From positions 1-50,772 of the forward strand of contig CAMOKH010000079.1 in assembly GCA_946617675.1 (NCBI GenBank): DNA of 50,772 nucleotides. Direction: 5' to 3'. The notes under the pieces were generated by a model that ran no database searches, had not been told where the DNA came from, and was given only the letters and a program-made list of their open reading frames with translations. A program made the position numbers and the translations under genes. Below are positions 31,802-45,584 of this stretch, piece by piece; position 1 is the first letter of the stretch; the number at the start of each line of letters is the position of its first letter. This DNA comes from an uncultured Prevotellaceae bacterium. GTDB taxonomy: Bacteria; Bacteroidota; Bacteroidia; Bacteroidales; Bacteroidaceae.

Positions 31802-31919
31802 GGCACTTTTGCTTATTCAAAAGGGTAATCTTTATGTCAATTCGTTTCTTTGGCAATTATTCCACCAATTCTGATAATATTTTCCCGTCCAAAAACTGAC
31901 GTTTTTAGCAAATTTGTTG

Positions 31920-31927
31920 TACCTTTG
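31920..31927 (+). promoter_or_regulatory. TAnnTTTG promoter element for the second regulator
   Basis: TACCTTTG followed by CAC, 19 bases before the ATG at 31947. An in-frame TTG at 31914 lies upstream of the element and cannot be the start. Confidence 0.65.
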
Positions 31928-31946
31928 CACGCAAACTGAACAAATC

Positions 31947-34900
31947 ATGATGAAAAGAGCTATACTGACCATTCTACTGATTATAGCACTCACAAGTGTT
32001 GTTGCCCAACCTTTTTGCAACGTTCGTAGATTCAGCCTGAGAGACGGACTGGCGTCAAATGTCATATCAAGCATGGAGCAGACGCAGGACCAGTTGATGT
32101 GGTTCTCGTCATGGAACGGCCTGAACTGTTACGACGGCTACGCATTCACCACTTTTAACGACCATACGGGGCATGAGCGCACACTGACCACAAACCGGCT
32201 GCTAAAGATTACACCGTCGGCAAGTAGTGGCAGTATCTGGTGCCTGACCTACGACCGTCAGGTGTTTCTATTCGACCGCAGTACGTGCCGCTTTCTCAAT
32301 GTGTCGGCAATCATCGACAATCTGTTGGGGAGAGCGTTCGTCTGCCAGCGTATAATATCCTTGCGAAATGGCCATGCATGGCTGTTCAGCCGTGGCGAGG
32401 AAGGTCTCTGCATCTGTATTGACGAACGGCAGGAACTGACCACAGATTCTATCCATATATTTAGTCGCGAGAATGGGAGACTGCATGGAAAGACGGTTTA
32501 CGGTGTCGAACTGGACGACGATGGACGTGAGTGGTTGTGTACCGACGGTGGTGCGTGCATTGTTGGTATGGAGTTAGACACAAAGACTCCCTACACGTTT
32601 GTAAGACAGTTAGGCAGACAGGTCTATCTGGCCACTTTGGACGGACGATTCGGCTGTTATGACGGCAAAACCATAACACCGTTGAGAAACCTGCCCGAAA
32701 ATATAGGTAGTGTCAGGGGAATGGAGTCTGTCGGCGACCGCTATTTGGCTGCTCCTACTGATATCGGACTGCTTGTTTACGACACAAAAAGCCGACAGTC
32801 ACGACTGCTCGACGGCACCGACGGCGACATCAATGAAATCAGCATTGACAGCCGTCAGCGCATCTGGGCGCTGACGGCCCATGGCGGCGTGCTGCTTGGT
32901 ACCGCCGACAGGCAGATGCAGCAAATAACCGTGATGGGTACAATGCCCACTCTGCACCAGTGTACACGCCAATTAGTGCATGAAGACCACTACGGCACTG
33001 TATGGGTAGGCACTGAACGGGGATTTTTCGGCTACTACGACGAACAGGCGCATCATCTGGTGCCATACCTCGTCAGGACAAACGCAGCACAGCCTACCAT
33101 CGACCGCTGGTATGCCGACAGCCGTGGTGACCTCTGGTTCTCAGGCGAGCACGACATGGCTGTCATCAACTTCGGACAGCGTGTGTTCAACACGACGACT
33201 ATGGAACAGATGCAACAAGTGCGTAGCATCTGCTACGACAGTCGTGGACGGTTATGGTTGGGCGACATTGCAGGTCATGTGGCTGTCACAGAGGGCCACA
33301 ACGTCAGCTACTTAGGCAACGACGGACGGCTACATCAGCAGCCAACTATCTTCTCCGACCACATCTACTGCCTGTATGAGGACAGTCAACGGCGTCTCTG
33401 GATAGGTACTAAAGGTGACGGCCTCTACAGTGTAACCGCCGATGGCCAGGTCAGTCACTACCGTCACGACGACGGCGACAGCTGGTCGTTACCCAGCGAC
33501 CAGATATACGATGTACACGAGGACCATCAGCACCGGCTGTGGATAGGCACCTTCGAGCAGGGCATCTGTCTGATGGACGGTCAGCGGTTCATTCATGCCG
33601 GTAATCAGCTGAAGCAATATCCCGTGAAAGACTTTTTCAAGGTGCGCCGAATTACTGAGACGCCCAGCGGCATCATCATTGTGGCGGCCTCGAACGGACT
33701 GGTGGTCTTCTCAGAGCAATTCACGCAAACAGCCGACATCAGGTTCTATGCCCATAAGCATGTGCCCGGTGATACCACATCGCTGCTGACAAGCGACGTG
33801 ATGCAGGCCTGTGTCGATCATGATGGTCGCATCTTCGTGGCTACTGTTGGCGGAGGCTTGCAACAGGTGGCCGACCGCCAGTTGTTGCGCGACAAACTCA
33901 AGCTGACCACGTCGGGACGCATGGACGGAGACTACAGCACCATCCTTAACATGCTCGAAGACCGCAGGGGCAACCTCTGGATAGGGCGCGAGAGCAGTAT
34001 TGCCATGCATGAATATGAGACGGGGCGGTTGTGGCTCTTCGGCCCTGGCCATTTAGGCGAGCAAACAGAACTAACGGAAGCCAAACCAGCTTTCGACCCC
34101 CAGACGGGACAGATAGCCTTTGCCACAACCAACGGATACGTCAGTTTCCAGCCCGAGCAGATAGGACAGGAAAACTTCGTACCGCCACTGGTGTTCAAAA
34201 GCGTCTATTTCCACGGCACACAGGAGTCGGTACACCTGATGAAAGACGATATGCTCGACGTGCCTGCCACACAACGCAATCTGACCATCCACTTTGCCGC
34301 ACTCGATTACCAGGATAACTACATGATACGCTATGCCTATAAGTTAGAGGGCATTGACAACGACTGGAATTACTTAGGCACGGAACACAGTATATCGTTC
34401 AGCAACCTGCCCCATGGCCACCACCGGCTGCTGGTACGCAGCACCAGCCAATATGGTTCATGGGCCGACAACGAGCAGGCACTCATGCTCAACGTCCATC
34501 CCACGTTCTGGGAGACATGGTGGGCCAAACTGCTATACGTCATGCTGCTGACAGGAGTTGTGGCCGTCGGTGTATGGATTTACCTGCTCCGTAACCGTGC
34601 TGAACAGGAACGCCAGAAAAGCCGCATGCTTTCACTTCTGCTGGAGGAGATGAACCAGCATCAAGATTACGAAACAACCTCAAAAAAGCCTGAGCAGGAA
34701 TCAAAGGAAGATGATAACAACATACTGCGACTCCGTCCCACCGACATCGTTGACAGCGACAAACTGATGATGGAACAGCTGTTGGCCTATATTGAGGAGA
34801 ATCTGTCAAACCCAGACCTGAAAGTCGAGGACTTGGCTCAGGCCGTCTGCTTAGGTCGTACCGCGTTCTACAACAAGGTGAAGGCGCTCGTGGGTATCAG

Positions 34901-35081
34901 CCCTGTGGAACTGCTGCGCCACATCCGCATACGTCACGCCGAGGACATGGTGGCAAAGTCGCAGGAGCCGTTTTCGCAGATTGCCTACGCCGTGGGTTTC
35001 AGCGACACCCACTACTTTGGCAAATGCTTCAAGAAACAAACAGGCCTCACACCCTCGGAATACCGTGAGCGCAAGGCCTGA
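31947..35081 (+). CDS. HTCS-like propeller-Y_Y_Y-AraC regulator without kinase or receiver
   Basis: 1044 residues from ATG ATG at 31947; the start MMKRAILTILLIIALTSVVA is a signal/anchor. The periplasmic part is a long run of propeller blades (RQRIWALTAHGGVL, YGTVWVGTERGFF, QRRLWIGTKGDGLYS, QHRLWIGTFEQGIC, RGNLWIGRESS) and a Y_Y_Y-type domain (YAYKLEGIDNDWNYLG). One membrane span lies at about 860-881, followed by about 60 charged residues and an AraC-type DNA-binding domain at about 940-1040 (IAYAVGFSDTHYFGKCFKKQ). Classical hybrid two-component proteins place HisKA, HATPase and receiver domains there; none is present. It probably senses a pectin fragment and drives the divergent CE8-PL1/GH3 operon. 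Confidence 0.88.
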   Translation: MMKRAILTILLIIALTSVVAQPFCNVRRFSLRDGLASNVISSMEQTQDQLMWFSSWNGLNCYDGYAFTTFNDHTGHERTLTTNRLLKITPSASSGSIWCLTYDRQVFLFDRSTCRFLNVSAIIDNLLGRAFVCQRIISLRNGHAWLFSRGEEGLCICIDERQELTTDSIHIFSRENGRLHGKTVYGVELDDDGREWLCTDGGACIVGMELDTKTPYTFVRQLGRQVYLATLDGRFGCYDGKTITPLRNLPENIGSVRGMESVGDRYLAAPTDIGLLVYDTKSRQSRLLDGTDGDINEISIDSRQRIWALTAHGGVLLGTADRQMQQITVMGTMPTLHQCTRQLVHEDHYGTVWVGTERGFFGYYDEQAHHLVPYLVRTNAAQPTIDRWYADSRGDLWFSGEHDMAVINFGQRVFNTTTMEQMQQVRSICYDSRGRLWLGDIAGHVAVTEGHNVSYLGNDGRLHQQPTIFSDHIYCLYEDSQRRLWIGTKGDGLYSVTADGQVSHYRHDDGDSWSLPSDQIYDVHEDHQHRLWIGTFEQGICLMDGQRFIHAGNQLKQYPVKDFFKVRRITETPSGIIIVAASNGLVVFSEQFTQTADIRFYAHKHVPGDTTSLLTSDVMQACVDHDGRIFVATVGGGLQQVADRQLLRDKLKLTTSGRMDGDYSTILNMLEDRRGNLWIGRESSIAMHEYETGRLWLFGPGHLGEQTELTEAKPAFDPQTGQIAFATTNGYVSFQPEQIGQENFVPPLVFKSVYFHGTQESVHLMKDDMLDVPATQRNLTIHFAALDYQDNYMIRYAYKLEGIDNDWNYLGTEHSISFSNLPHGHHRLLVRSTSQYGSWADNEQALMLNVHPTFWETWWAKLLYVMLLTGVVAVGVWIYLLRNRAEQERQKSRMLSLLLEEMNQHQDYETTSKKPEQESKEDDNNILRLRPTDIVDSDKLMMEQLLAYIEENLSNPDLKVEDLAQAVCLGRTAFYNKVKALVGISPVELLRHIRIRHAEDMVAKSQEPFSQIAYAVGFSDTHYFGKCFKKQTGLTPSEYRERKA

Positions 35082-35102: not shown

Positions 35103-37841
35103 TTACTTTACTATTACTTTCTTGCCGTCAACAATGTAAAGACCCTTTTTTGCTGCATTGACCTTGCGGCCCTGAAGGTCATAAACATTGAATGTAGAAC
35201 ACGGAACGCTGAACTGTACATTGTCAATCCCTGTCGGGTCGGCCTTGACAAAACTGATGGCGTAGATGTTGCCTACCCATGAGCCTGCGGCAGTCTCGCC
35301 GTAAATCCTTACCGTAGCACGGCCTTCCGTCAGGTTGATGCCGCGAACGATGACGTCTTCCTGTGCACCCCAACCGTTGCCGGGAACATCGACCGTGGCA
35401 TCTGTTACGACAGTCTCGTCCTCAGTAATCGTCACACGCATCACACCGCCAGGAGCGGCATTCGACAGCAGCAGCGTCATGTCGTAGGCATCGGTCTGAG
35501 CGACGAATACATCGTAGGTGACACTGCCCCCTTCGTAGCCGAAGCCAATGTTGCCGGCACCTTCAGTACGCCACTGGTCGAATGTGCCCTGAGCCAGTTT
35601 GAAGGGGTCTTCGTCGGTAGAGGGTATGACGTTGATAATAAACAGGTTCTTCAGTCCGCTGGTGCTCACGGTCAGGGAATCGTAGGCTGCATGCAGCAAT
35701 TTGCCGTCGCCACTGGCAATAGCCTCCTTGGCAAGCCGGATAGCCTCCTCAACCTTTTCAATGGGGGTACGGTCAGCAATACGGTTCTCGTAGCGACTGC
35801 CTACACCGTATTCGTCGATAGCCGCCTGGGCTTCATCGGCTTTCTCCTGCACACTCTCCGGGGTGAACTGTGCGTACCAAGCCTTACGGGCGTCTTCCAC
35901 GGCCTTGGCTCCAGCACCCTCCGTTCCGTCAATCTTGGTGAACTTGAACAGGCGGGGATTGCCTACGTAGCTGGGGCCGGTGCCGGTAATCTTCAGGTAA
36001 ACGTAGCCGGCGGGAACAGCACCAACCTTCATCGACTTGGGTTCGAACATCTGCCATCCGCCCGTGCTGGTGAACTCCTCAGACAGGGCGTCGGTCACCA
36101 GAAGCCGGGTGCCGGCTTCCTCGTCGTCGACTAGTATCTGGAACTCCATCTGGGCACCGTCATTGGCATGAGCAAACTCAAACTCTACCTCGTATTCGGC
36201 ATCAAAGCGGTTGTAGACTTTATAGAGCATATAGCCCTCGGAGCGGAAATTATCGAGCTGCATAATGCCGCCGTCCGACTTGTAGGAACAGTTTTTGCTA
36301 TCGTCATAGGCCACCACATCGAACTCACCAGAAGTGGGAAATATGTTCAGCACCTTCAAGTTGGCGAGGGCCAAGATGGCGTCGTTCAGGTTTTCGTAAG
36401 CTTCATCCACCTTTTCGGGAATCTCCTCGTATAAGACCTTTTCGGCCAAGTCGACGGTCTCCTCCAGGCGGTCCAACAGCGTACGGTCTTCCACGGCGTA
36501 GTATTCGTCGGTGCCTTCACGGTAGACCCATAGTTTTGCCTGTGCCTCCTCCATGAGTGCCTCCAATTGTTCGGAAGTGTGATACTCCTTTGGCAGGTAG
36601 CGCAACAGAATATTGCGCACATTCGTATACTGACGATAGTACATGTGGAGGAAGTAGGTCTTGCCTGCTTCCATCTGGAACTTGGCTATCTCAGAGTTGC
36701 TCATCAACTCGTAGTTCTGCCAGGCACCGTTGTTGGTGGGCAGCAGGTATTTCTGCATGACAACAGTGGCGCTATCATCGGCCAGAATAGTCATTTCGAT
36801 GCCTCCGGAGTTTTGCGAGCTGGCCAGATACTGAATGTACCATGCCCCATCCTTCGGCAGGTCATCGCTGGCAGTGAACTTATAAGTGAAATAGTTGTTC
36901 TGGGTGAACTCCAACTGCGCAGGCGTGTCCTCCAGTCCATTCTCCATCTCGTAAGACCCGCTCTCGTCGTAGCCGCCCAAAGGAGCCATCGTTGCGGGGT
37001 CGTTGTACTCGTTGTGGTAGAGCAACAGGTCGATGCGGGTGCTGTCCTCTCCGACAATGACACCTTTACCATGGCGCACATCGGCCTCCTTCAGTTCGAC
37101 AGCCCGCATATCGGCCTCTACGGCAGCTGTAGATGCTGTCGTGTAGTCGGTGCGGATAGCCTGCAACAGGGCTTCATAGTCGCTCACCATTCTAATCGTG
37201 GTGGCATCCTGTAGGCTGGTAAAGTATTTTACGCGGAAAGCCTTTTGGCTGGCACGGGCGGCAAGTTCACCCACATTTCCCGAGCCTTCGCCTAGCACGC
37301 GGATACTCCTGAACTGCACCTTTTGGGGAGCCAGCGCATCGTTGCGCCAGTAGACGTGCATAAAGACGTGTACATAGTTAATACCGGCTTTCAGTTCTAC
37401 GGCAGAAAACATGTAGACAGGAGTACCCAGTTCAGCAGCAGTTCCCTCTTCTGATTCTTCAGCGGCAACAGGTTCCTGCAGATCCTCGTCGGTCTTGCAG
37501 ATGGAGTGGGCAAAGCTGTCGAACTCCGGCTCTGTCAAGGCTGTTTCCGAGTCTGTAGCTATGGCGCCAAGCTGCACGTTGTTGCCCGTAACATTGACCA
37601 AATACTCCACAGCATATTTGCCATCGGCAGGGGCATTGATCTTAAACGACAGCAACGGCGTGCGAAGCAACGTGCGCGTGGCACCTTCCAACTTGTAGGG
37701 CCAGTCGAGCTTCATCCATGAGGCATCGGTGAATTCGGTTACGGGCTGCCCAATCTCATTGGCAGCTGTTGCAGCTGCGGTAGCAAGCAGTGCAGCTGCC
37801 AATGCAATAGTTTTCATTGAACGTAAAAACATTTTTTTCAT
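35103..37841 (-). CDS. Large secreted multidomain protein, probable non-catalytic glycan binder
   Basis: 912 residues, secreted (signal peptide about 1-27; ATG also at 37832 and 37817). I do not recognise the whole protein. It alternates about four beta-sandwich modules resembling carbohydrate-binding domains (about 30-190, 265-425, 510-640 and 760-880) with three helical, Ala/Glu-rich segments (about 200-260, 435-505 and 650-745; for example VDEAYENLNDAILALANLK) that resemble FIVAR-like repeats. The end, VYDLQGRKVNAAKKGLYIVDG, is the same C-terminal tail type as the CE8-PL1 protein. It is strongly acidic and has no catalytic domain I can see. It converges on the regulator gene, whose stop is 21 bases away. 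A role in holding pectin at the surface is an inference. Confidence 0.6.
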   Translation of the reverse strand: MKKMFLRSMKTIALAAALLATAAATAANEIGQPVTEFTDASWMKLDWPYKLEGATRTLLRTPLLSFKINAPADGKYAVEYLVNVTGNNVQLGAIATDSETALTEPEFDSFAHSICKTDEDLQEPVAAEESEEGTAAELGTPVYMFSAVELKAGINYVHVFMHVYWRNDALAPQKVQFRSIRVLGEGSGNVGELAARASQKAFRVKYFTSLQDATTIRMVSDYEALLQAIRTDYTTASTAAVEADMRAVELKEADVRHGKGVIVGEDSTRIDLLLYHNEYNDPATMAPLGGYDESGSYEMENGLEDTPAQLEFTQNNYFTYKFTASDDLPKDGAWYIQYLASSQNSGGIEMTILADDSATVVMQKYLLPTNNGAWQNYELMSNSEIAKFQMEAGKTYFLHMYYRQYTNVRNILLRYLPKEYHTSEQLEALMEEAQAKLWVYREGTDEYYAVEDRTLLDRLEETVDLAEKVLYEEIPEKVDEAYENLNDAILALANLKVLNIFPTSGEFDVVAYDDSKNCSYKSDGGIMQLDNFRSEGYMLYKVYNRFDAEYEVEFEFAHANDGAQMEFQILVDDEEAGTRLLVTDALSEEFTSTGGWQMFEPKSMKVGAVPAGYVYLKITGTGPSYVGNPRLFKFTKIDGTEGAGAKAVEDARKAWYAQFTPESVQEKADEAQAAIDEYGVGSRYENRIADRTPIEKVEEAIRLAKEAIASGDGKLLHAAYDSLTVSTSGLKNLFIINVIPSTDEDPFKLAQGTFDQWRTEGAGNIGFGYEGGSVTYDVFVAQTDAYDMTLLLSNAAPGGVMRVTITEDETVVTDATVDVPGNGWGAQEDVIVRGINLTEGRATVRIYGETAAGSWVGNIYAISFVKADPTGIDNVQFSVPCSTFNVYDLQGRKVNAAKKGLYIVDGKKVIVK

Positions 37842-38236: not shown

Positions 38237-38436
38237 GAAAAATAGAGAAAATAGTCGTTGAGAAGGTCGTTGCCTACACTAAACCAAATTGCCTACACAA
38301 AGTTAGCAGCTGACAGTCAGCAGGTTACGGCTTAGTGTAAGCAGTGTAGGCACTCTACAAAATAAATATTTCGTGAGAGCGAGGCTGGACAGCCATAGCG
38401 AAGCCTTCCCAAAGGTATTCTGCCTACAATCCAAGA

Positions 38437-38473
38437 AATTATCATTTTTTTGATAATTATTTTTTGATAATTA
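38437..38473. promoter_or_regulatory. Tandem 14-bp units upstream of the ATPase promoter
   Basis: TTTTTTGATAATTA occurs twice head-to-tail (38446-38459 and 38460-38473) and is preceded by the inverted half AATTATCA (38437-38444). The second unit ends 12 bases before the -7 element, so the units cover the -33 region, where a regulator would control the promoter. The degraded ATPase locus at 39844-40071 has the same layout with different sequence. Confidence 0.6.
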
Positions 38474-38485
38474 CGGCAAAAGTAC

Positions 38486-38493
38486 TATCTTTG
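38486..38493 (+). promoter_or_regulatory. TAnnTTTG promoter element for the ATPase gene
   Basis: TATCTTTG followed by CAC, 20 bases before the ATG at 38514. Confidence 0.65.
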
Positions 38494-38513
38494 CACAAAA
38501 AACAGCGGAATAT

Positions 38514-39647
38514 ATGATTGACAATCCTTTTGTAACAAATGGCTACGCCGGACCAGAGTACTTCTGTGACCGTGTGGACGAAACGGCGATGCTTACCAGC
38601 CTCCTGACCAATGGAAATAATATTGCCCTGATGTCGCCACGCCGCGTGGGTAAGACCGACTTGATAAAACACTGCTTCCAACAGACAGGAATCAAAGAGG
38701 AGTTTTATTGTTTCGTCATCGACATCTATGCCACCAACTCATTCCGCGACTTCGTCAGCATGTTCGGGAAATCCATCCTCGACGCATTGAAGCCCAAAGG
38801 CAGAAAGGTCTGGGAGGGCTTTCTGAATACGCTGCTGTCGATACGTTCTGAAATATCCTTCGACATCAACGGCAATCCCCAATGGGGCTTGGGCGTAGGG
38901 GCGATGGTTCCACCGCAAACAACGCTCGACGAGATCTTCGCCTATCTGCGCACGGCAGAGAAACACTGCTTCGTTGCTATAGACGAGTTTCAGCAGATTC
39001 TTTATTATAATGACAACCAGAACGTAGAGGCTGCACTGCGCACCCAGATTCAGCAATGCCCGAATGCCAACTTCGTCTTTGCCGGTTCACAGCGCCACTT
39101 GATGAGCGAGATGTTCCTGTCGCCCTCACGCCCTTTCTACCAGTCGGTGGTGCCCATGAGTCTTGGGACAATACCTCTGGACCGCTACTGGGCTTTTGCC
39201 GAGCCACAGTTTGCCAAGAATGGTGACAGACGAATATCCTACGAGGTTGTAGCGTCGGTCTACCAGCGCTTTGAGGGGATTACAGCCAACGTGCAGCGTA
39301 TCATGAACATGCTCTACATGCTGACACCGAAAGGCGAGACATGTACGCTGGAGATGATTGACAGGGCCATTGACACCTATCTGCAATTGTCATCAGCCTA
39401 TTACGGCGAACTGCTGCGCCAGATGCCAGAAAAGCAGCGCAACGTGTTTTTGGCCATCGCAGCGGAAGGTCAGGTGAAAAACATCTCCGGCGGCAAGTTC
39501 GTCCACAAATATCATCTTCCCTCAGCCAGTTCCGTGGTTTCGGCCGTAAAAGGGCTACTGGAAAAGGATTTCATTACTCAGACCGACAATGTTTACAGCA
39601 TCTACGACCGCTTCTTCCAGTTGTGGTTAGAGGCTGGCAAGGCTTGA
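38514..39647 (+). CDS. AAA/STAND-like P-loop ATPase (archaeal ATPase family)
   Basis: 377 residues, cytoplasmic. Walker A is SPRRVGKT (residues 41-48, Lys47), preceded by the family's N-terminal block PEYFCDRVDETAMLTSLLTN. Walker B is CFVAIDEF with Asp157-Glu158, and FVFAGSQRHLM is a likely sensor region. The C-terminal 110 residues look like a winged helix (GGKFVHKYHLPSASSVVSAVKGLLEKDFI) and end YSIYDRFFQLWLEAGKA. This matches the small ATPases often present in many copies in Bacteroidetes; their biological role is poorly understood. It is a single-gene unit with its own promoter and tandem upstream units, close to a deleted relative on the other strand, in a more AT-rich, repeat-rich patch. 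Confidence 0.85.
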   Translation: MIDNPFVTNGYAGPEYFCDRVDETAMLTSLLTNGNNIALMSPRRVGKTDLIKHCFQQTGIKEEFYCFVIDIYATNSFRDFVSMFGKSILDALKPKGRKVWEGFLNTLLSIRSEISFDINGNPQWGLGVGAMVPPQTTLDEIFAYLRTAEKHCFVAIDEFQQILYYNDNQNVEAALRTQIQQCPNANFVFAGSQRHLMSEMFLSPSRPFYQSVVPMSLGTIPLDRYWAFAEPQFAKNGDRRISYEVVASVYQRFEGITANVQRIMNMLYMLTPKGETCTLEMIDRAIDTYLQLSSAYYGELLRQMPEKQRNVFLAIAAEGQVKNISGGKFVHKYHLPSASSVVSAVKGLLEKDFITQTDNVYSIYDRFFQLWLEAGKA

Positions 39648-39843
39648 ACTTGGGCAGTTCCGCAGAGAAAATCCATAAAGTCCACGAGTTTAATAGTTGC
39701 CGTAGTTCTTTAGGAAGGGGGATGTTGTCGAGGTTGCACTGGTCGGCCGCCCTTAAACAGCCGAATTTTTAGATGAGCGGCAGTTTATGCATCAAGTGCA
39801 AAAAGTGCAGGTTCTTTCTGGCTTTACCTTACCAAGAGACTAT
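39648..39843. other. Gene-free stretch after the ATPase gene
   Basis: No ORF of interest. It holds the right copy of the 19-base direct repeat (39772-39790), followed by AAGTGCA (39794-39800) and AAGTGCAGG (39803-39811), motifs shared with 10976-11042 and 50499-50591. No T-tracted hairpin is visible. Confidence 0.5.
39772..39790. repeat. 19-base direct repeat, right copy
   Basis: Identical to 38060-38078. It lies 125 bases after the ATPase stop codon. The pair could be the trace of a recombination or insertion that brought in the ATPase segment, or two members of an intergenic repeat family. Confidence 0.75.
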
Positions 39844-39998
39844 TTACAGGAAGCGCTGTCTGAACCATAAGGCGAAGACTGGGTCGGTGATATAGAGCTG
39901 GCGCATCTCCGAATAGGCGAGGTCGCGCTGGTTTCTTCCTCTCGGCCAGTGAAATTATAGTCCGTAACGGCCACTCCATAGACAAAGCTCTTCTCCAT
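39844..39998 (-). pseudogene. Internally deleted ATPase gene of the same family
   Basis: On the minus strand the ATG at 39998 opens MEKSFVYGVAVTDYNFTGRE, the typical beginning of this ATPase family (compare the F-x-x-R-x-x-E block of the intact neighbour). Within about 25 codons, and in another frame, the sequence becomes QRDLAYSEMRQLYITDPVFA then LWFRQRFL and a stop at 39844-39846, the typical C-terminus (ITDPVFALWFR). About 300 middle codons, including Walker A and B, are missing and the two ends are out of frame. It is therefore a deletion remnant of a second ATPase gene, with its upstream palindrome still in place. Confidence 0.75.
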
Positions 39999-40017
39999 AA
40001 CTTACTGTATTTGAGGG

Positions 40018-40025
40018 TAAAGATA
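40018..40025 (-). promoter_or_regulatory. Weak -7-like element of the deleted ATPase gene
   Basis: The minus strand reads TATCTTTA, one mismatch from TAnnTTTG, 19 bases upstream of the remnant's ATG at 39998. The mismatch may reflect decay after the gene was lost. Confidence 0.4.
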
Positions 40026-40041
40026 GTAAAAAGAAAAAAAA

Positions 40042-40071
40042 TTCACAAGTTTGTGATCACAAACTTGTGAA
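40042..40071. promoter_or_regulatory. Perfect 30-bp palindrome made of two 14-bp units
   Basis: TTCACAAGTTTGTGA (40042-40056) is followed immediately by its exact inverse TCACAAACTTGTGAA (40057-40071), with no loop. It can also be read as two adjacent 14-bp near-dyads, TCACAAGTTTGTGA and TCACAAACTTGTGA. It lies 16 bases upstream of the -7-like element of the deleted ATPase gene and 51 bases from the end of the S8 protease gene. It might be an operator, or a stem that also terminates transcription. Confidence 0.65.
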
Positions 40072-40122: not shown

Positions 40123-43100
40123 TCAGGGCTGGGGGCACTGCAGGGCTACAGCTATTATGGCTGTCAAGTCGGTGATGTCTACCACGTTGTTACCATCCAT
40201 GTCGGCGGCAGCCTTGCTGAAGCCTGTTGGGTTCTGACCGAGAATGTGGCTGACGGTCAGCCTGATGTCATCAACGTCAACATCGCCGTCACCGTCGGCG
40301 TCGCCTTTCAGGGGGGCCGTGGCCGTCACCTGCCGGTAGATTTGGGGGACCGACTTAACGGATGAAGAACTGTCATAGCATGAGAAGATGGGCAGACCGC
40401 TATTGGGATTGAAGCGCATCGTGTTGTGCTCATTGTCACCTTGGAAGGTGATGGTGGCGCTGCCGTCGCTGATGCTGATGGTGGCCTGGGCATTGGCGTC
40501 GGCTTTCGATTCTGTCCGCATATAGTTCTTGGTGCTGCTGGCGGCATAGAGATAGCCATCGCCGACGTTGAAGAGGTAGTTGCTGCCGGCCTTCTCGAGG
40601 GTGATGACCTGGGCTTCGACGCCAGGCATGAGCGTGCCGTCGCTGTTGACCGTCACGTCGTCAGTGGCAGCGCGGTTGTTGGTGTTCTGCGTCTTACTGA
40701 GCACCAGCTGCGTGTCGCCGTCGATATAGGCAATAAGAATCTTGTCGCCCGCGGCCAGCGTGCCGGCATCAGTCACCAGGGCATAGCTGCCGGTGGCGAC
40801 GGCCGGGTCAGGATCCGAGCCGGGCGTCGTGCCGCCTCCGCTGCCTTCATAGAACACCTTCACCTTCCGGATGCGGCGGTGCCCGCTGGTGCCGCCGACG
40901 GTGAACGTGACCGACGTGCTGCTGCCCGTCCAGGTGCCATCGTCGTAGGTGCCGACATCGGTAGTGATGCCATTGGTACCATCGCCCGAGCCGAACGTCA
41001 GTTCTATCTTAATAATGGTATTGGTGGCCGAGGCGATGGTCATCGTGTTGCCGCCATACAAGCGGGCGGCCTCGCCCGTGTCGTAGTACTTGGGCGAGTT
41101 GTTCTTGTTGGTTCCCTTCCCGAAGGTGGCCTCGCAGTTGGTCCCGCTGGTGCTTGTCAGCGATTCTGCATTCTCATAGTCCTGGGCGGCGAAGTCGATG
41201 ACCTCGTCGGTGACGGCCGAGGCGTTGGCAGTGAGGCTGATGGTGACAGGCTCTGCCCCCGGACTGCTGAGCGTCAGGGTTGCCGTGAAGGAGCCTTCGT
41301 CGGCCGACTGGAACGTGACGGTGAGCGCACCCTCCGTGACGGAACTCTTGTCGACAGAGAAGACACCGTTGGCATCGGCAAGAGCGACGGTGACAGCGGC
41401 GGTCAGGAATTCGCCCGCCACCTCGATGGGCTTGCTGTCCGGCTGGTCAAGTCCGGCGACAAAGGCCAGCGATTCCGCGTCGGCAATGATGGTAGGCGCG
41501 GCAGGCTTGGCAGTTGCCACGAGCGGAATCACCACGTCCTTGGCACCACTCGATGAGAGTACGATCGAAGCCTCATGCGTGCCGGCGGCCTGCGGTGCAT
41601 ACGTGACGGTAATGTCAACGCCGTCGGCGGCCTCGTCGCTGGTGACGGTCGTCGCGCTCAGCCCGTAAGCCTCGCTCCCGCTCCCGTTAAGGTTAAGGTT
41701 AACGTCAGCGTCAAGGCTATAGCCCCGCACGCTGAACGTCCGGGTGTATGTCCTGGTGGCGAAGTTGGCGCTGCCGAAGTCGATGCGTGCAGGCGTTGCC
41801 TTGATAAGCGGACTGCCTGACGTTCCCAGGATGTACTGGATACCGGCCAGGGCGTCGATCTTGCCGTGGCCGAAGTGGGTGGCATTGGGGCCCGTGGTGT
41901 AGCTGTCGCTGATGGCGGTCTGCCTCATGATGTCCTTCACGTCGTTCACCGTCAGCGGTTTCTTGACCTCCTGGGCTGCCTGTAGCCACTGGGCCACGAT
42001 GCCGGCAACCACGGGCGTAGCCATCGACGTGCCTTCCATCACGCCGTACGGACTGCTGGAGCTGTTGACCACCAACTCGCTCTTGTAGGGGCCATAGTAG
42101 CTGTAGTCGCCCTTCTTGTCGTAATGGTTCACGGCAGCCACCAGCTGTGCTCCGGGGGCGGTGATCCACGGATAGGACTGCCCCGTCGGGCTCTGCTCGG
42201 CGGTGGCATAGCTTGAGAAGTAGACGATGTCGCCCAGCGCGCCCGAACTGTAGGTATTGGTCTGTCCCTGAGCGTTGGTCACGCGGTCCTTCGACACATA
42301 GGCGCCCACGGAGATGGCGTCGGGGATGGTGGCTTCGTCGCTGACGCACATATCGTCGGTGCCTGCCGTCCACGTATATCCTGAGGTCGAAAGATGGTTG
42401 GTGAAGTAGCTCCAGTCGCCGGCCCACATGTCAACGTCGGCACTGCCCGAGGCTGGGTAGACCTCGATGGCCAGCGTGTAGTCGCCTTCAGCCTCAAGGT
42501 CTTCGTCGGTGACGACGACCAGCTGGTATTTCCCGTTGTCGGGTTCAATGTAGATGGCCAGCGAACCATAATAGTACTTGCTGAGCCCGCTGAAGGACGT
42601 GGTCTCCTTGGTCACCGTCCACGATTTCTTGACGGCTCCGGTCGAGTTGTCGAGCACATGAAGCTTGCAGTTCAGCTTGCCGACGGACCACGCATAGGCT
42701 ATCAGGCCCGTGTAGTAGTCGCCGCCCTCGCCGTCGGTACGGATGATGGTGCCCAGGGGTGCACTGCTGCTGACGGCACTCTTCTTGACGAAGAAGCCGC
42801 CGCCCTCGCTGCCCGTCCGGTGACCGGCATCGTTCGACGCGGCAAAGAGTATGACTCGGTTGGGATGGTCGTCGCCGAAATACTTGCCCACAAGCTCTGC
42901 AAGTTCGCCCGTGCCGTCGCGGGGCCCCCAGCCGGAGCCCCAGCTGTTGCTCACCACGAGGGGCTTGCCCTGGTTGTCGGCATAGTTCACCATGCGCTGC
43001 AGGGCGCTGGTGAGATAAACGTCGTCCAACCCATTGATTCCGGCCAGGTAGAGGTCGGCCCCCGGTGCCATACCGCCGTAGGTAGCGCTGGCGTGGTCGT

Positions 43101-43911
43101 CGGTGACGCTGACCGTCGAACCGCTGACGACGACGCTCGAGCCGCCAGCCGTCGAGGCGGTGTGCGTGCCGTGGTCTTCGGCCGAATCGTCGGTGGTCGG
43201 TGACGTGGCTGTGATGTCTTCTTCTGCGTATTCCTTCACCTTGCCTGACCCTGAATAGACGTAGGCCCGCTTGATGCGGCTCTTGCCGTCCTTGTCCTTG
43301 AAGGCAACGTGCTGGAAGTCGATGCCCGTGTCGATGATGCCGAGTATGACGCCTGTGCCGTCATACTTATCGGTCACGCCCAAGGCCAAGGCGTCAGCCG
43401 ACTGGGTAAGCAGGTCGGCGGCGTTGGTCGTCTGCCGCGCCACGTCGGTCAGCGGCCGCATCGGGCGGGCCACCTTGATACGCGTGACGTTGTCGATGGC
43501 CGCCAGCGGTTCTAACTGGTCGGCAGGCACACGGGCGGCGACGAAGTCGAGGCCGTCGAACGTCTGCTCGACCTCGACGCCGAGGGCACGGACGGCTCCG
43601 AGGTCAGCCGCATTCTTCAGATGAACGAAGCACGGGATGTAGGCCACGCCGTCGACCGTGTCGGGCGTGGCTATGAGTCGGCGATGCTTCGGCCGGACCT
43701 TACTGCCGGGCAGTCGGCGCATACGGGTAGGCCGCGAAGCCGCCGGATTTTCGGCCTGTTTTTTCTGTCCGCTGAGGAACATCTGTGTGGTGATTGAGAA
43801 CTTCTCGTTCTCCTCCTGGCCCCACGTCACGGCGACGGGCGCCACAAGCATGACGAGGGCCGTTAAGACCCTCGTCAGCTTAGTTTTCATTTTGTCGGTT
43901 CTGGTTTTCAT
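40123..43911 (-). CDS. Secreted S8 (subtilisin-like) serine protease with C-terminal dockerin
   Basis: 1262 residues from the ATG at 43911 (alternative 43890), chosen because MKTKLTRVLTALVMLVAPVA is a signal peptide; the frame is open farther upstream but there it only overlaps the DUF2207 gene. The catalytic triad is Asp194 in IIDTGIDF, His247 in DHGTHTAS and Ser629 in EGTSMATP. Several beta-sandwich domains follow (about 700-1000), then a region with GSGGGTTPGSDPDP, and the final 60 residues form two dockerin type I calcium repeats (GDADGDGDVDVDDIRLTVSH and MDGNNVVDITDLTAI). Dockerins bind cohesins, so surface or complex attachment is possible. It is third in an operon, 14 bases after the DUF2207 gene. 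Confidence 0.9.
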   Translation of the reverse strand: MKTRTDKMKTKLTRVLTALVMLVAPVAVTWGQEENEKFSITTQMFLSGQKKQAENPAASRPTRMRRLPGSKVRPKHRRLIATPDTVDGVAYIPCFVHLKNAADLGAVRALGVEVEQTFDGLDFVAARVPADQLEPLAAIDNVTRIKVARPMRPLTDVARQTTNAADLLTQSADALALGVTDKYDGTGVILGIIDTGIDFQHVAFKDKDGKSRIKRAYVYSGSGKVKEYAEEDITATSPTTDDSAEDHGTHTASTAGGSSVVVSGSTVSVTDDHASATYGGMAPGADLYLAGINGLDDVYLTSALQRMVNYADNQGKPLVVSNSWGSGWGPRDGTGELAELVGKYFGDDHPNRVILFAASNDAGHRTGSEGGGFFVKKSAVSSSAPLGTIIRTDGEGGDYYTGLIAYAWSVGKLNCKLHVLDNSTGAVKKSWTVTKETTSFSGLSKYYYGSLAIYIEPDNGKYQLVVVTDEDLEAEGDYTLAIEVYPASGSADVDMWAGDWSYFTNHLSTSGYTWTAGTDDMCVSDEATIPDAISVGAYVSKDRVTNAQGQTNTYSSGALGDIVYFSSYATAEQSPTGQSYPWITAPGAQLVAAVNHYDKKGDYSYYGPYKSELVVNSSSSPYGVMEGTSMATPVVAGIVAQWLQAAQEVKKPLTVNDVKDIMRQTAISDSYTTGPNATHFGHGKIDALAGIQYILGTSGSPLIKATPARIDFGSANFATRTYTRTFSVRGYSLDADVNLNLNGSGSEAYGLSATTVTSDEAADGVDITVTYAPQAAGTHEASIVLSSSGAKDVVIPLVATAKPAAPTIIADAESLAFVAGLDQPDSKPIEVAGEFLTAAVTVALADANGVFSVDKSSVTEGALTVTFQSADEGSFTATLTLSSPGAEPVTISLTANASAVTDEVIDFAAQDYENAESLTSTSGTNCEATFGKGTNKNNSPKYYDTGEAARLYGGNTMTIASATNTIIKIELTFGSGDGTNGITTDVGTYDDGTWTGSSTSVTFTVGGTSGHRRIRKVKVFYEGSGGGTTPGSDPDPAVATGSYALVTDAGTLAAGDKILIAYIDGDTQLVLSKTQNTNNRAATDDVTVNSDGTLMPGVEAQVITLEKAGSNYLFNVGDGYLYAASSTKNYMRTESKADANAQATISISDGSATITFQGDNEHNTMRFNPNSGLPIFSCYDSSSSVKSVPQIYRQVTATAPLKGDADGDGDVDVDDIRLTVSHILGQNPTGFSKAAADMDGNNVVDITDLTAIIAVALQCPQP

Positions 43912-43925
43912 TGTTTTCTTTTTTT

Positions 43926-45584
43926 TTATCTGACGCCGCCGCCGAAGCCGCCGCCGGAGAAGCCTCCGCCACCGCCGCCCCACGACGTGTGACCGCCGCC
44001 GCCCGAGGCCCGGGCCTCGCGGGCAGCCTTGCTGGCTACGGCGCGTGCCGTACTGCTGTGCATGGTGGAGTAGATCATCGGGATGGTCATGTCGTCGGCC
44101 ATCACGTGGGCCACCTGGTCCATGTTGAAGTATTCGGGGTTGATCTTCTTCATGTCGCGGATCACCTGGTCGGCAATACCGAAGAGGGTGGCGTAGATCA
44201 TGTAGTCCTTCCACAGGCCAACTTCGCTGACATGGCGCTCGTCCATCAGGGTGAACTCCTGCAGGAACTTCTTCAGGCCGAAGACCTTGCGCGCCTCTTC
44301 GATGTGGTTGGCATACTTGCTGGCATTGCCCTTGACGTGCAGAGTCTCGATGAACGAGTCGGTAATGCTCCGGGTGCTGCTGCTCTTCATAAACGACTTC
44401 AGCTCCCACGGCTCGAGGACGGTGTCTTCGCCGGCGGCCATGCGGAAGATGTTGTGCATCTTGCGCACAAGCACGGGCTGGCTGCCCTGGTCGGGCAGGT
44501 CGTGGATGACGAAGCTCTGCACCGTCTTGCCCTTCTTGTTGGGCCGCGGCTCAATGGTGATGGCACCCATGTTGACGAGCTTCAGTATGACGGCTGAGAG
44601 CAGGTTGTCGTAGTCGCTGCCGGTGTAGCGCGCGGCGTTCAGCATGTTATTGGCCTCCTGCAGGTTGCCGTTCAGCGGAATGTCGCGGTACCAAAGCAGG
44701 TCTTTGTTCACGTTGCGGCGGAAGCGCCAGACGGTGTAGACCTTGTAGAGCCACGCGCAGACAGGAGCCACGACGACGAACAGGACGAAGAAGATGAGGT
44801 AGAGGATGTCCTCGGCGCTGAAGTCGCTCTCGCTGATGGCGTAGTCGCTGCCCTCGAAGGCCTCGCCCTGCTTCTGCTCGAAGGTGACGTCCTCCTGGAT
44901 GGTGGGCTGGAACATGCCCTTGTCGAAGCGCACCATGATGTATAGTCCGCTGCCACTCTCCATCGGCTCGGTGGTCTCGGCCACGATGCTGTCGCCGACG
45001 AAGTCAATGGTGCCCATGAAGCGGAAGCCCCAGATGCCGCAGTGCTCGGCCGTCAGGCGCGTGCTGTCGTCCTCGGCCACGATGGTCACCATGGCATGGG
45101 CCGGCTTGGGCGTGACGCCCTCGTCGAGGAAGACGTGGCGGATGGCGTCGGCATCGGGATAGGCGTGGACGAGGCTGGTGACGGTGTAGCTCGTCACGTA
45201 GGTGCGGTCGCCGCTGTCGCCGAGGCCCCAGCACAGCTCGTAGCCGCCGCTCTTGTAGACAATGCCGCAACGGCCTGCCTTCCACTCGCGGCTGCGGTCG
45301 ATGTCCCACTCGCCGACGTTCTCAAACTGACGTCCGGTCTCGTCGCTGACCGTCAGGTCGCGCACCTCGCTGCCGCCCATGTTGCCCAGTCCGATGAAGC
45401 ACTCAGTGCCCTCGGAGTCGATGCTCATCTGGCGTGTCTCGGTGATACGGGCGTCGCCGTTCGCACTCAGCACAACGCGGATGTTCAGGTCGTGCAGGTA
45501 CGGACGTGCCCAGCCGGTGACACAGCACAGGCAGCACACTACGGCCAGGAGCCAGCGGCCAGGGTTACTTCTTAAATGCATCAT
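43926..45584 (-). CDS. DUF2207-like membrane protein with Gly-rich tail
   Basis: 552 residues starting at tandem ATGs (45584/45581), overlapping the lemA end by about 20 bases. Residues 1-30 are a signal sequence. A beta-rich extracytoplasmic domain follows (IRVVLSANGDARITETRQM, and VGEWDIDRSREWKAGRCGIV), then one clear span (LYLIFFVLFVVVAPVCAWLYK, about residue 260-280) and a cytoplasmic helical part. The end, GGGGHTSWGGGGGGFSGG, is the glycine-rich tail common in DUF2207 and TPM-domain proteins. Such proteins are regularly found next to LemA; their function is unknown. The order lemA-DUF2207-S8 protease suggests envelope quality control or protein export. Confidence 0.82.
   Translation of the reverse strand: MMHLRSNPGRWLLAVVCCLCCVTGWARPYLHDLNIRVVLSANGDARITETRQMSIDSEGTECFIGLGNMGGSEVRDLTVSDETGRQFENVGEWDIDRSREWKAGRCGIVYKSGGYELCWGLGDSGDRTYVTSYTVTSLVHAYPDADAIRHVFLDEGVTPKPAHAMVTIVAEDDSTRLTAEHCGIWGFRFMGTIDFVGDSIVAETTEPMESGSGLYIMVRFDKGMFQPTIQEDVTFEQKQGEAFEGSDYAISESDFSAEDILYLIFFVLFVVVAPVCAWLYKVYTVWRFRRNVNKDLLWYRDIPLNGNLQEANNMLNAARYTGSDYDNLLSAVILKLVNMGAITIEPRPNKKGKTVQSFVIHDLPDQGSQPVLVRKMHNIFRMAAGEDTVLEPWELKSFMKSSSTRSITDSFIETLHVKGNASKYANHIEEARKVFGLKKFLQEFTLMDERHVSEVGLWKDYMIYATLFGIADQVIRDMKKINPEYFNMDQVAHVMADDMTIPMIYSTMHSSTARAVASKAAREARASGGGGHTSWGGGGGGFSGGGFGGGVR

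What the first reader, a model, noticed from the sequence alone, without database searches (positions are those of the whole stretch)
38437..40071. Two ATPase loci, one intact and one deleted, share an architecture of two tandem 14-bp units upstream of the promoter
The intact ATPase gene (38514) is preceded by TTTTTTGATAATTA twice in tandem; the deleted relative on the other strand is preceded by TCACAAGTTTGTGA and TCACAAACTTGTGA in tandem. Period (14), copy number (2) and distance to the -7 element (12 and 16 bases) agree while the sequences differ. This looks like a family of locus-specific operators, each perhaps read by its own ATPase or its winged-helix tail, keeping many paralogous ATPases separately regulated.
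Basis: partly seen in the sequence, partly recalled or inferred. Interest (0 to 1): 0.72.

Follow-up and report, generated by a model that had tools for sequence, protein, structure and literature searches.

The report
ATPase genes with private promoter operators
Many related ATPase genes of Bacteroidales gut and rumen bacteria carry tandem 14-15-bp DNA repeats at their own promoter, the repeat sequence differs from subfamily to subfamily, and it tracks one amino acid in the protein's predicted DNA-reading helix, so each ATPase likely binds and switches off its own gene through a private operator.

Summary
The intact ATPase (38514-39647) and the deleted relative (39844-39998, - strand) each have tandem repeats at the promoter, and so do most relatives: 106 of 175 upstreams in genus and family have a period-14/15 repeat, against 8 of 353 neighbour-gene controls; 53 of 86 held-out order-level genes do. 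Period is 14 or 15, copies two or more; the block covers -33, abuts -7, or follows it.

Column 343, in the predicted recognition helix, ranks first of 377 columns for the pre-stated half-site ending CAA, in training and held-out data, though the held-out rate was lower than predicted (12 of 30 R343 against 2 of 38; training 30 of 33 against 11 of 160). K343 goes with CC/GG, S343 with CGAA. The T343 prediction failed.

New: at 80-90% protein identity, homology starts about 77 bp before the ATG (the operator's outer edge) and ends near the stop codon; 161 of 168 pairs share no flanks. Operator plus gene looks like one transferable cassette.

Best reading: a STAND/Cdc6-like ATPase repressing itself through a private operator. 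Binding and repression are untested.

The parts
38437..38473 (+). operator of the intact ATPase: inverted half-site AATTATCA (38437-38444) and two tandem TTTTTTGATAATTA units (38446-38459, 38460-38473)
   Evidence: read directly; conserved block in relatives begins about here; TGATAATTATTTTTTGATAATTA has no other place in the 2.14-Mb assembly at up to 2 mismatches and one at 3
38463..38493 (+). core promoter: -33 TTTG (38463-38466, inside the second unit), 19-bp spacer, -7 TATCTTTG (38486-38493)
   Evidence: Bacteroides consensus TTTG / TAnnTTTG as quoted in PMC7366714 (passages)
38514..39647 (+). STAND/Cdc6-like ATPase, 377 aa, C-terminal winged helix
   Evidence: Pfam AAA_14; AlphaFold2 pLDDT 87.5 and fold matches 2qen, 2fna, Orc/Cdc6
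39525..39563 (+). predicted recognition helix H3 (residues 338-350); residue 343 is codon 39540-39542 (Ser)
   Evidence: secondary structure; columns around it and above all 343 track operator sequence
39844..39998 (-). internally deleted ATPase relative: 69 bp of 5' end joined to 86 bp of 3' end
   Evidence: alignment to intact relative L104, 124 of 155 bases identical; frames read
40042..40071 (-). operator of the deleted relative, a perfect 30-bp palindrome made of two TCACAA..TTGTGA units
   Evidence: like units at intact relatives L104 and L106; CACAAACTTGTG occurs exactly 4 times in the assembly, 2 here and 2 at the L003 ATPase
40018..40025 (-). -7 element TATCTTTA of the deleted relative

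Best explanation
Each gene is a one-gene unit, an operator-promoter followed by a Cdc6-like STAND ATPase, in which the ATPase's C-terminal winged helix likely binds the tandem units at its own promoter and would repress its own transcription. Shown here: the tandem imperfectly palindromic 14/15-bp units; their position over -33, abutting -7 or after -7; their conservation with the gene and change between subfamilies; and the association of one recognition-helix residue (343) with operator bases in training and held-out data. Inferred: direct binding, repression by excluding RNA polymerase, and ATP-dependent oligomerisation along the tandem sites as the switch. The operator-plus-gene block sits among unrelated flanks in nearly all 80-90% identical pairs, so it probably moves between loci as a cassette; a private operator would let a newcomer control itself without cross-talk. 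In the window the intact gene is an example with operator and reader together, and the deleted copy has lost its reader while keeping its operator.
For: Period-14/15 repeats: 106 of 175 vs 8 of 353 controls; held-out 53 of 86. Position: of 168 blocks with a TAnnTTTG (the nearest one taken), 122 lie upstream (107 of them ending 7-22 bp before -7), 17 abut or overlap it, 29 lie downstream; downstream sites suit a repressor. Conservation among 75-95% identical proteins (439 pairs): 0.54-0.88 identity over -50 to -9 from -7, and 0.24-0.30 further out. Operator similarity follows protein identity. Recognition helix: 7 of 12 variable columns of 335-347 in the top 30 of 337 (hypergeometric p=1.3e-5; this column range was set after a first look at the same data); column 343 ranks 4/326, 3/332 and 1/319 in three disjoint subfamilies. 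Pre-stated half-site ending CAA: R343 30/33 vs 11/160 in training, 12/30 vs 2/38 held-out (p=5e-4); column 343 ranks 1 of 377 for it in both sets. Register-free CA-N3/4-TG (worded after both lists were seen): R343 29/33 vs 6/160 and 21/30 vs 8/38, rank 1 of 377 in both and after collapsing to 117, 69 or 28 clusters built on the ATPase part alone. K343 with CC/GG, noted before the held-out set: held-out 6/7 vs 10/61. CG-type half-sites, held-out: S343->A 5/5, R343->C 2/2. Two tested operator sequences are not found exactly outside ATPase promoters or the remnant in the own genome. Cassette: 7 of 168 pairs at 80-90% identity share flanks; alignment starts 60-110 bp before the ATG in 156 of 168.
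Against: No binding or expression data. 33 of 86 held-out and 69 of 175 genus/family upstreams do not pass as period-14/15 repeats (some show diverged dyads by eye). The winged helix as a whole does not stand out in sliding windows, and a mutual-information scan on single half-site bases is led by subfamily-marker columns. In the C-type group alone the helix columns are not significantly enriched (p=0.29). The pre-stated prediction that most R343 genes have half-sites ending CAA failed as worded (12 of 30), partly because the half-site register is ambiguous. T343->G/T failed (0/2). K343 ranks only behind alanine at column 343 for CC/GG in training, where the column ranks 30 of 377, and 4 held-out; for CGAA/TTCG the column ranks 227 in training and 2 held-out. 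Shared ancestry can inflate all counts; cluster collapsing reduces but does not remove this.
Confidence: 0.78

Rival explanations
1. The units are bound by an unlinked host regulator, and the ATPase is merely its target gene.
For: No binding was measured; other genes can have promoter repeats (45 of 353 controls at any period).
Against: Many different unit sequences, each tied to the protein subfamily, and operator bases tracking a recognition-helix residue of the downstream protein. The two unit sequences tested do not recur exactly at other kinds of gene in the own genome (the assembly is 56% complete).
Confidence: 0.1
2. The ATPase binds its own units but as an activator or as a nucleation site for another DNA act (replication- or transposition-like), not mainly as a repressor.
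For: The fold is shared with Orc1/Cdc6 and, more weakly, TnsC and MuB; most blocks overlap the -33 region, where some activators can also sit; the operator is one edge of the transferable unit.
Against: 29 of 168 blocks lie downstream of -7 and 17 abut or overlap it, positions expected to block RNA polymerase. No second gene is shared within the flanks compared in nearly all 80-90% pairs.
Confidence: 0.2
3. The repeats are slippage or recombination by-products at AT-rich promoters with no regulatory role.
For: Copy number varies; heptad slippage repeats exist upstream of some neighbour genes.
Against: Fixed 14/15 period, palindromic units (109 of 175 with palindrome score at least 9, vs 36 of 353 controls), strong conservation against random flanks, and co-variation with residue 343.
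Confidence: 0.03

Closest known systems
SSO1545 / PABY2304 archaeal ATPases (PDB 2fna, 2qen; the MNS-type STAND NTPases as recalled from Leipe et al. 2004)
   Different: Solved structures without an assigned operator (recalled; the SSO1545 paper is not held); 16-18% identity
Archaeal Orc1/Cdc6 initiators
   Different: Origin binding, not promoter operators; here the sites are private to each subfamily of paralogues
repABC RepA autorepression in Rhizobium leguminosarum (PMC4492784; abstract and outline read)
   Same: Related ATPases coexisting in one genome, each binding specifically its own operator with imperfect palindromes and autorepressing its own operon, with nucleotide dependence
   Different: RepA is ParA-type and acts in plasmid partition; no residue-base rule was taken from it
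IniR (PMC5760070; passages read)
   Same: AAA+ domain likened to SSO1545 plus a C-terminal DNA-binding domain; binds a promoter
   Different: 818 aa (M. marinum) with a MalT-like domain; induces iniBAC transcription
LacI-family recognition-helix code and lambdoid repressor immunity groups (recalled)
   Same: Specificity switched by few recognition-helix residues with matching operator changes
   Different: Different fold; no ATPase

Membership tests
Pfam AAA_14 (PF13173) | score above the gathering cut-off | tested here: met
   31.4 bits vs 27
Pfam ATPase_2 (PF01637) | score above the gathering cut-off | tested here: not met
   27.4 bits vs 33.2 for the window protein; the 120 listed near relatives carry PF01637 as precomputed
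SSO1545/PABY2304-type STAND ATPase | AAA+ core plus C-terminal winged helix in the same arrangement | tested here: met
SSO1545/PABY2304-type STAND ATPase | Walker A and an acidic Walker B-type motif | tested here: met
   R43 R44 G46 K47 and D157 E158 invariant in 28 diverse members
Orc1/Cdc6 initiator | fold | tested here: met
Orc1/Cdc6 initiator | acts at a replication origin | not tested
   no origin analysis done; sites are at the gene's own promoter
Transposition ATPase (TnsC/MuB) | travels with a transposase and element ends | tested here: not met
Known anti-phage defence protein | clear match to a PADLOC model | tested here: not met
   four family members scanned; best hits partial and weak, 4.9e-07 to 0.008
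Autorepressor with private operator (works-like) | operator at own promoter that co-varies with the protein's recognition helix | tested here: met
Autorepressor with private operator (works-like) | binding and repression | not testable with these tools
   needs a gel-shift and a reporter

The most novel reading that the evidence does not exclude
A vast family of single-gene selfish cassettes: each consists of an operator-promoter and one STAND ATPase that reads that operator, moves between loci and genomes as exactly that unit, and diversifies by coupled changes of one helix residue and the operator, giving phage-like immunity groups whose operators can be predicted from the protein sequence.
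Probability: 0.4. Interest if true: 0.88.

Novelty: new variant of a known kind. Interest (0 to 1): 0.76.

Why it matters
These ATPases are a large, unexplained, expanded family in gut and rumen Bacteroidales (76 of 100 genus genomes, up to 11 matches each; 7652 of the 7999 candidates scored in a capped search), named in the listing only 'ATP-binding protein', 'predicted ATPase' or 'hypothetical protein' where named at all. A private operator gives each copy a testable ligand at once, and a residue-to-base rule for a winged helix would let the operator be predicted from sequence. It also offers hundreds of natural protein-operator pairs, a resource for studying how regulators stay orthogonal after duplication or transfer, and a direct handle on what STAND/Cdc6-like solo ATPases do.

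Tried and rejected
Rejected: that the winged helix as a block co-varies best with the operator (no window stands out; peaks at 54-69, 94-113 and 142-157 are as high or higher). A mutual-information scan on single half-site bases was led by family-marker columns such as 38, 225 and 49 for h4; for h5, column 343 ranked second (63 clusters) or first (38 clusters). A 4-mer scan on clusters put 343R with ACAC at p=3.6e-5 at 39 clusters, behind several marker columns; at 24 clusters 343 was not among the 22 listed. A regex count of CG half-sites over all 244 upstreams mixed in background matches and was not used.

Incompatibility between same-operator copies in one genome: not supported and not excluded (2 of 71 within-genome pairs share an operator vs 311 of 8444 between genomes; permutation mean 2.6). 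G006 holds two copies with nearly the same operator (L104, L106).

Empty-site search: gene 35103-37841 has strong matches in three relatives (L390-L392). Its left neighbour, the regulator 31914-35081, is beside it in all three, but the right neighbour 40123-44409 is not, so no clean empty site was seen.

Rfam and tRNA scans of the window: nothing. NCBIfam: no match at a cut-off. PADLOC: weak partial hits. Phage records with a match: 2 of 50,697; plasmids: 23 of 72,556. Of six plasmid relatives read, the Bacteroides CACC 737 and Vibrio SCSIO 43186 genes have a period-14 repeat at score 10 or more; Arcobacter, Geobacter, Marinomonas and Parabacteroides distasonis do not.

Literature: searches listed no paper that by title or abstract start describes these operators, within an open-access library only (searches returned none).

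Full report
What is there. The intact ATPase gene at 38514-39647 has AATTATCA, then TTTTTTGATAATTA twice, ending 12 bp before the -7 TATCTTTG; the last unit holds the -33 TTTG. The - strand fragment 39998-39844 is an ATPase relative that kept 69 bp of its 5' end and 86 bp of its 3' end; against intact relative L104 the missing part is 976 bp. Its operator, 40042-40071, is a perfect 30-bp palindrome. In the same 2.14-Mb assembly (56% complete) there are two more ATPases, L002 and L003, each with its own dyads. Exact CACAAACTTGTG occurs four times in the assembly: twice at L003 and twice at the deleted copy; two further places match with one mismatch. TGATAATTATTTTTTGATAATTA with up to 3 mismatches occurs at its own promoter and once elsewhere with 3 mismatches. 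The L002 operator was not searched.

How general. 76 of 100 genomes of the genus carry matches, up to 11 each. I collected 182 loci from genus and family and scored 120-bp upstreams of 175 ATPases; the window's own gene was not in this count because of a start-finding slip. 110 of 175 had a strong direct repeat, 67 at period 14 and 39 at 15. Of 353 upstreams of other genes in the same loci, 45 had one, at scattered periods (8 at 14, none at 15), and 23 of 525 shuffles did, 2 of them at 15. The period-14 controls include heptad slippage repeats before ordinary genes. In 80 named loci (some the same contigs as before; 70 remained after removing duplicates), 56 passed. In 86 held-out genes, almost all from other families of the order, 53 passed, as predicted beforehand.

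Where it sits. Of 244 unique upstreams, 173 had a period-14/15 block (score at least 9) and 168 of these a TAnnTTTG; the nearest one was taken, which favours closeness. In 122 the block is upstream of -7, 107 of them ending 7-22 bp before it; in 17 it abuts or overlaps -7; in 29 it starts downstream. Among 439 pairs of 75-95% identical proteins, identity is 0.54-0.88 over -50 to -9 and 0.24-0.30 further out.

Who reads the operator. Among 193 genes with a detected operator, similarity falls with protein identity: 84% of 428 pairs at 75-99.9% share it, 36% of 245 at 65-75%, 10% of 2511 at 55-65%, 1.3% of 2461 at 45-55%, 0.0% as printed below. Adjusting for overall identity, columns 335-347 stand out (7 of 12 variable ones in the top 30 of 337); that range was set after a first look at the same data. 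Column 343 ranks 4 of 326, 3 of 332 and 1 of 319 in three disjoint subfamilies; the helix columns as a group were not significant in the C-type subfamily (p=0.29). Residue 343 arginine forms 9 clades on a tree built on the ATPase part alone; 30 of 33 such genes have half-sites ending CAA, against 11 of 160 others. In half-sites of the form xACGNAA, training showed S343 with A, R343 with C, T343 mostly with G or T (one T343 gene, L091, has C).

Held-out test. Predictions were written down first. P1 (repeats in at least half): met, 53 of 86. P2 (half-site ending CAA in most R343 genes, in under 15% of others): 12 of 30 and 2 of 38, so the first half failed as worded and the second held; the contrast is still significant (p=5e-4), and 343R is the best of 377 columns for it in held-out as in training data. 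P3: S343->A 5 of 5, R343->C 2 of 2, T343->G/T 0 of 2; two A343 genes had no prediction. A register-free form, at least two CA-N3/4-TG, was worded after both lists had been seen; it gives 29/33 vs 6/160 in training and 21/30 vs 8/38 held-out, and 343R ranks 1 of 377 in each. K343 with CC/GG was noted before the held-out set, its counting form (at least two) after; it gives 8/9 vs 50/184 and 6/7 vs 10/61. After collapsing all 261 genes into 117, 69 or 28 clusters on the ATPase part alone, 343R is still first for CA-N3/4-TG (p=4.6e-11, 1.8e-4, 1.8e-3). For CC/GG, column 343 ranks 30 in training (there with alanine) and 4 held-out; for CGAA/TTCG 227 and 2.

The cassette. The window block against 17 close relatives aligns from 38410-38447 to 39587-39648 and no further at E 1e-5, apart from one 53-bp piece in L004; a few of these loci have short flanks on one side. 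Over 506 pairs with at least 70% identity and at least 900 bp upstream and 500 bp downstream, flank homology is found in 0 of 310 (70-80%), 7 of 168 (80-90%), 9 of 24 (90-98%) and 4 of 4 (98-100%); the alignment starts 60-110 bp before the ATG in 156 of 168 at 80-90%. Pairs share loci and are not independent. As a contrast, the neighbouring gene 35103-37841 keeps its left neighbour in 3 of 3 relatives at 37-61% identity. No empty site was found.

Reading. The most economical account is a self-controlled ATPase with a private operator, transferred as a unit. Binding, repression, the role of ATP and the ultimate function of the ATPase are inference. The fold suggests nucleotide-dependent assembly on tandem sites. 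RepA of repABC plasmids (PMC4492784, abstract and outline) shows that such specific autorepression among coexisting ATPases occurs in nature, in another family.

Noticed in passing
L359 (order-level relative): About six tandem AGTAATAA-type units before one ATPase gene; most others show two or three.
   Followed up: no
window 38514-39998; G006:C9 (L027, L104); G034:C39 (L014); G294:C151; G431:C3: ATPase genes of different subfamilies recur within about 4 kb of each other, as in the window; not counted or tested.
   Followed up: no
G133:C88, G225:C120, G214:C66, G340:C17, G253:C13: Short or split ATPase matches are common, as with the deleted copy in the window; gain and loss look frequent (contig ends not excluded).
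   Followed up: no
L153, L145, L144, L049: Heptad repeats such as TTGACTC or CTGTCAA directly upstream of ordinary genes in relatives; unrelated in sequence to the ATPase operators.
   Followed up: partly
window 40123-44409 (-): Subtilase-family protein with a C-terminal type I dockerin match.
   Followed up: no
window 31914-35081 (+) and 35103-37841 (-): Large regulator with two-component propeller repeats, Y_Y_Y and AraC-type HTH, next to a 912-aa protein without Pfam match that has strong matches in only 3 of 99 other genus genomes; the pair stays together in those three.
   Followed up: partly
L421 (Vibrio sp. SCSIO 43186 plasmid): A 26% identical ATPase outside Bacteroidota also has a period-14 tandem repeat (CTAAATACTAA type) before its start, so the layout may be wider than the phylum.
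   Followed up: partly
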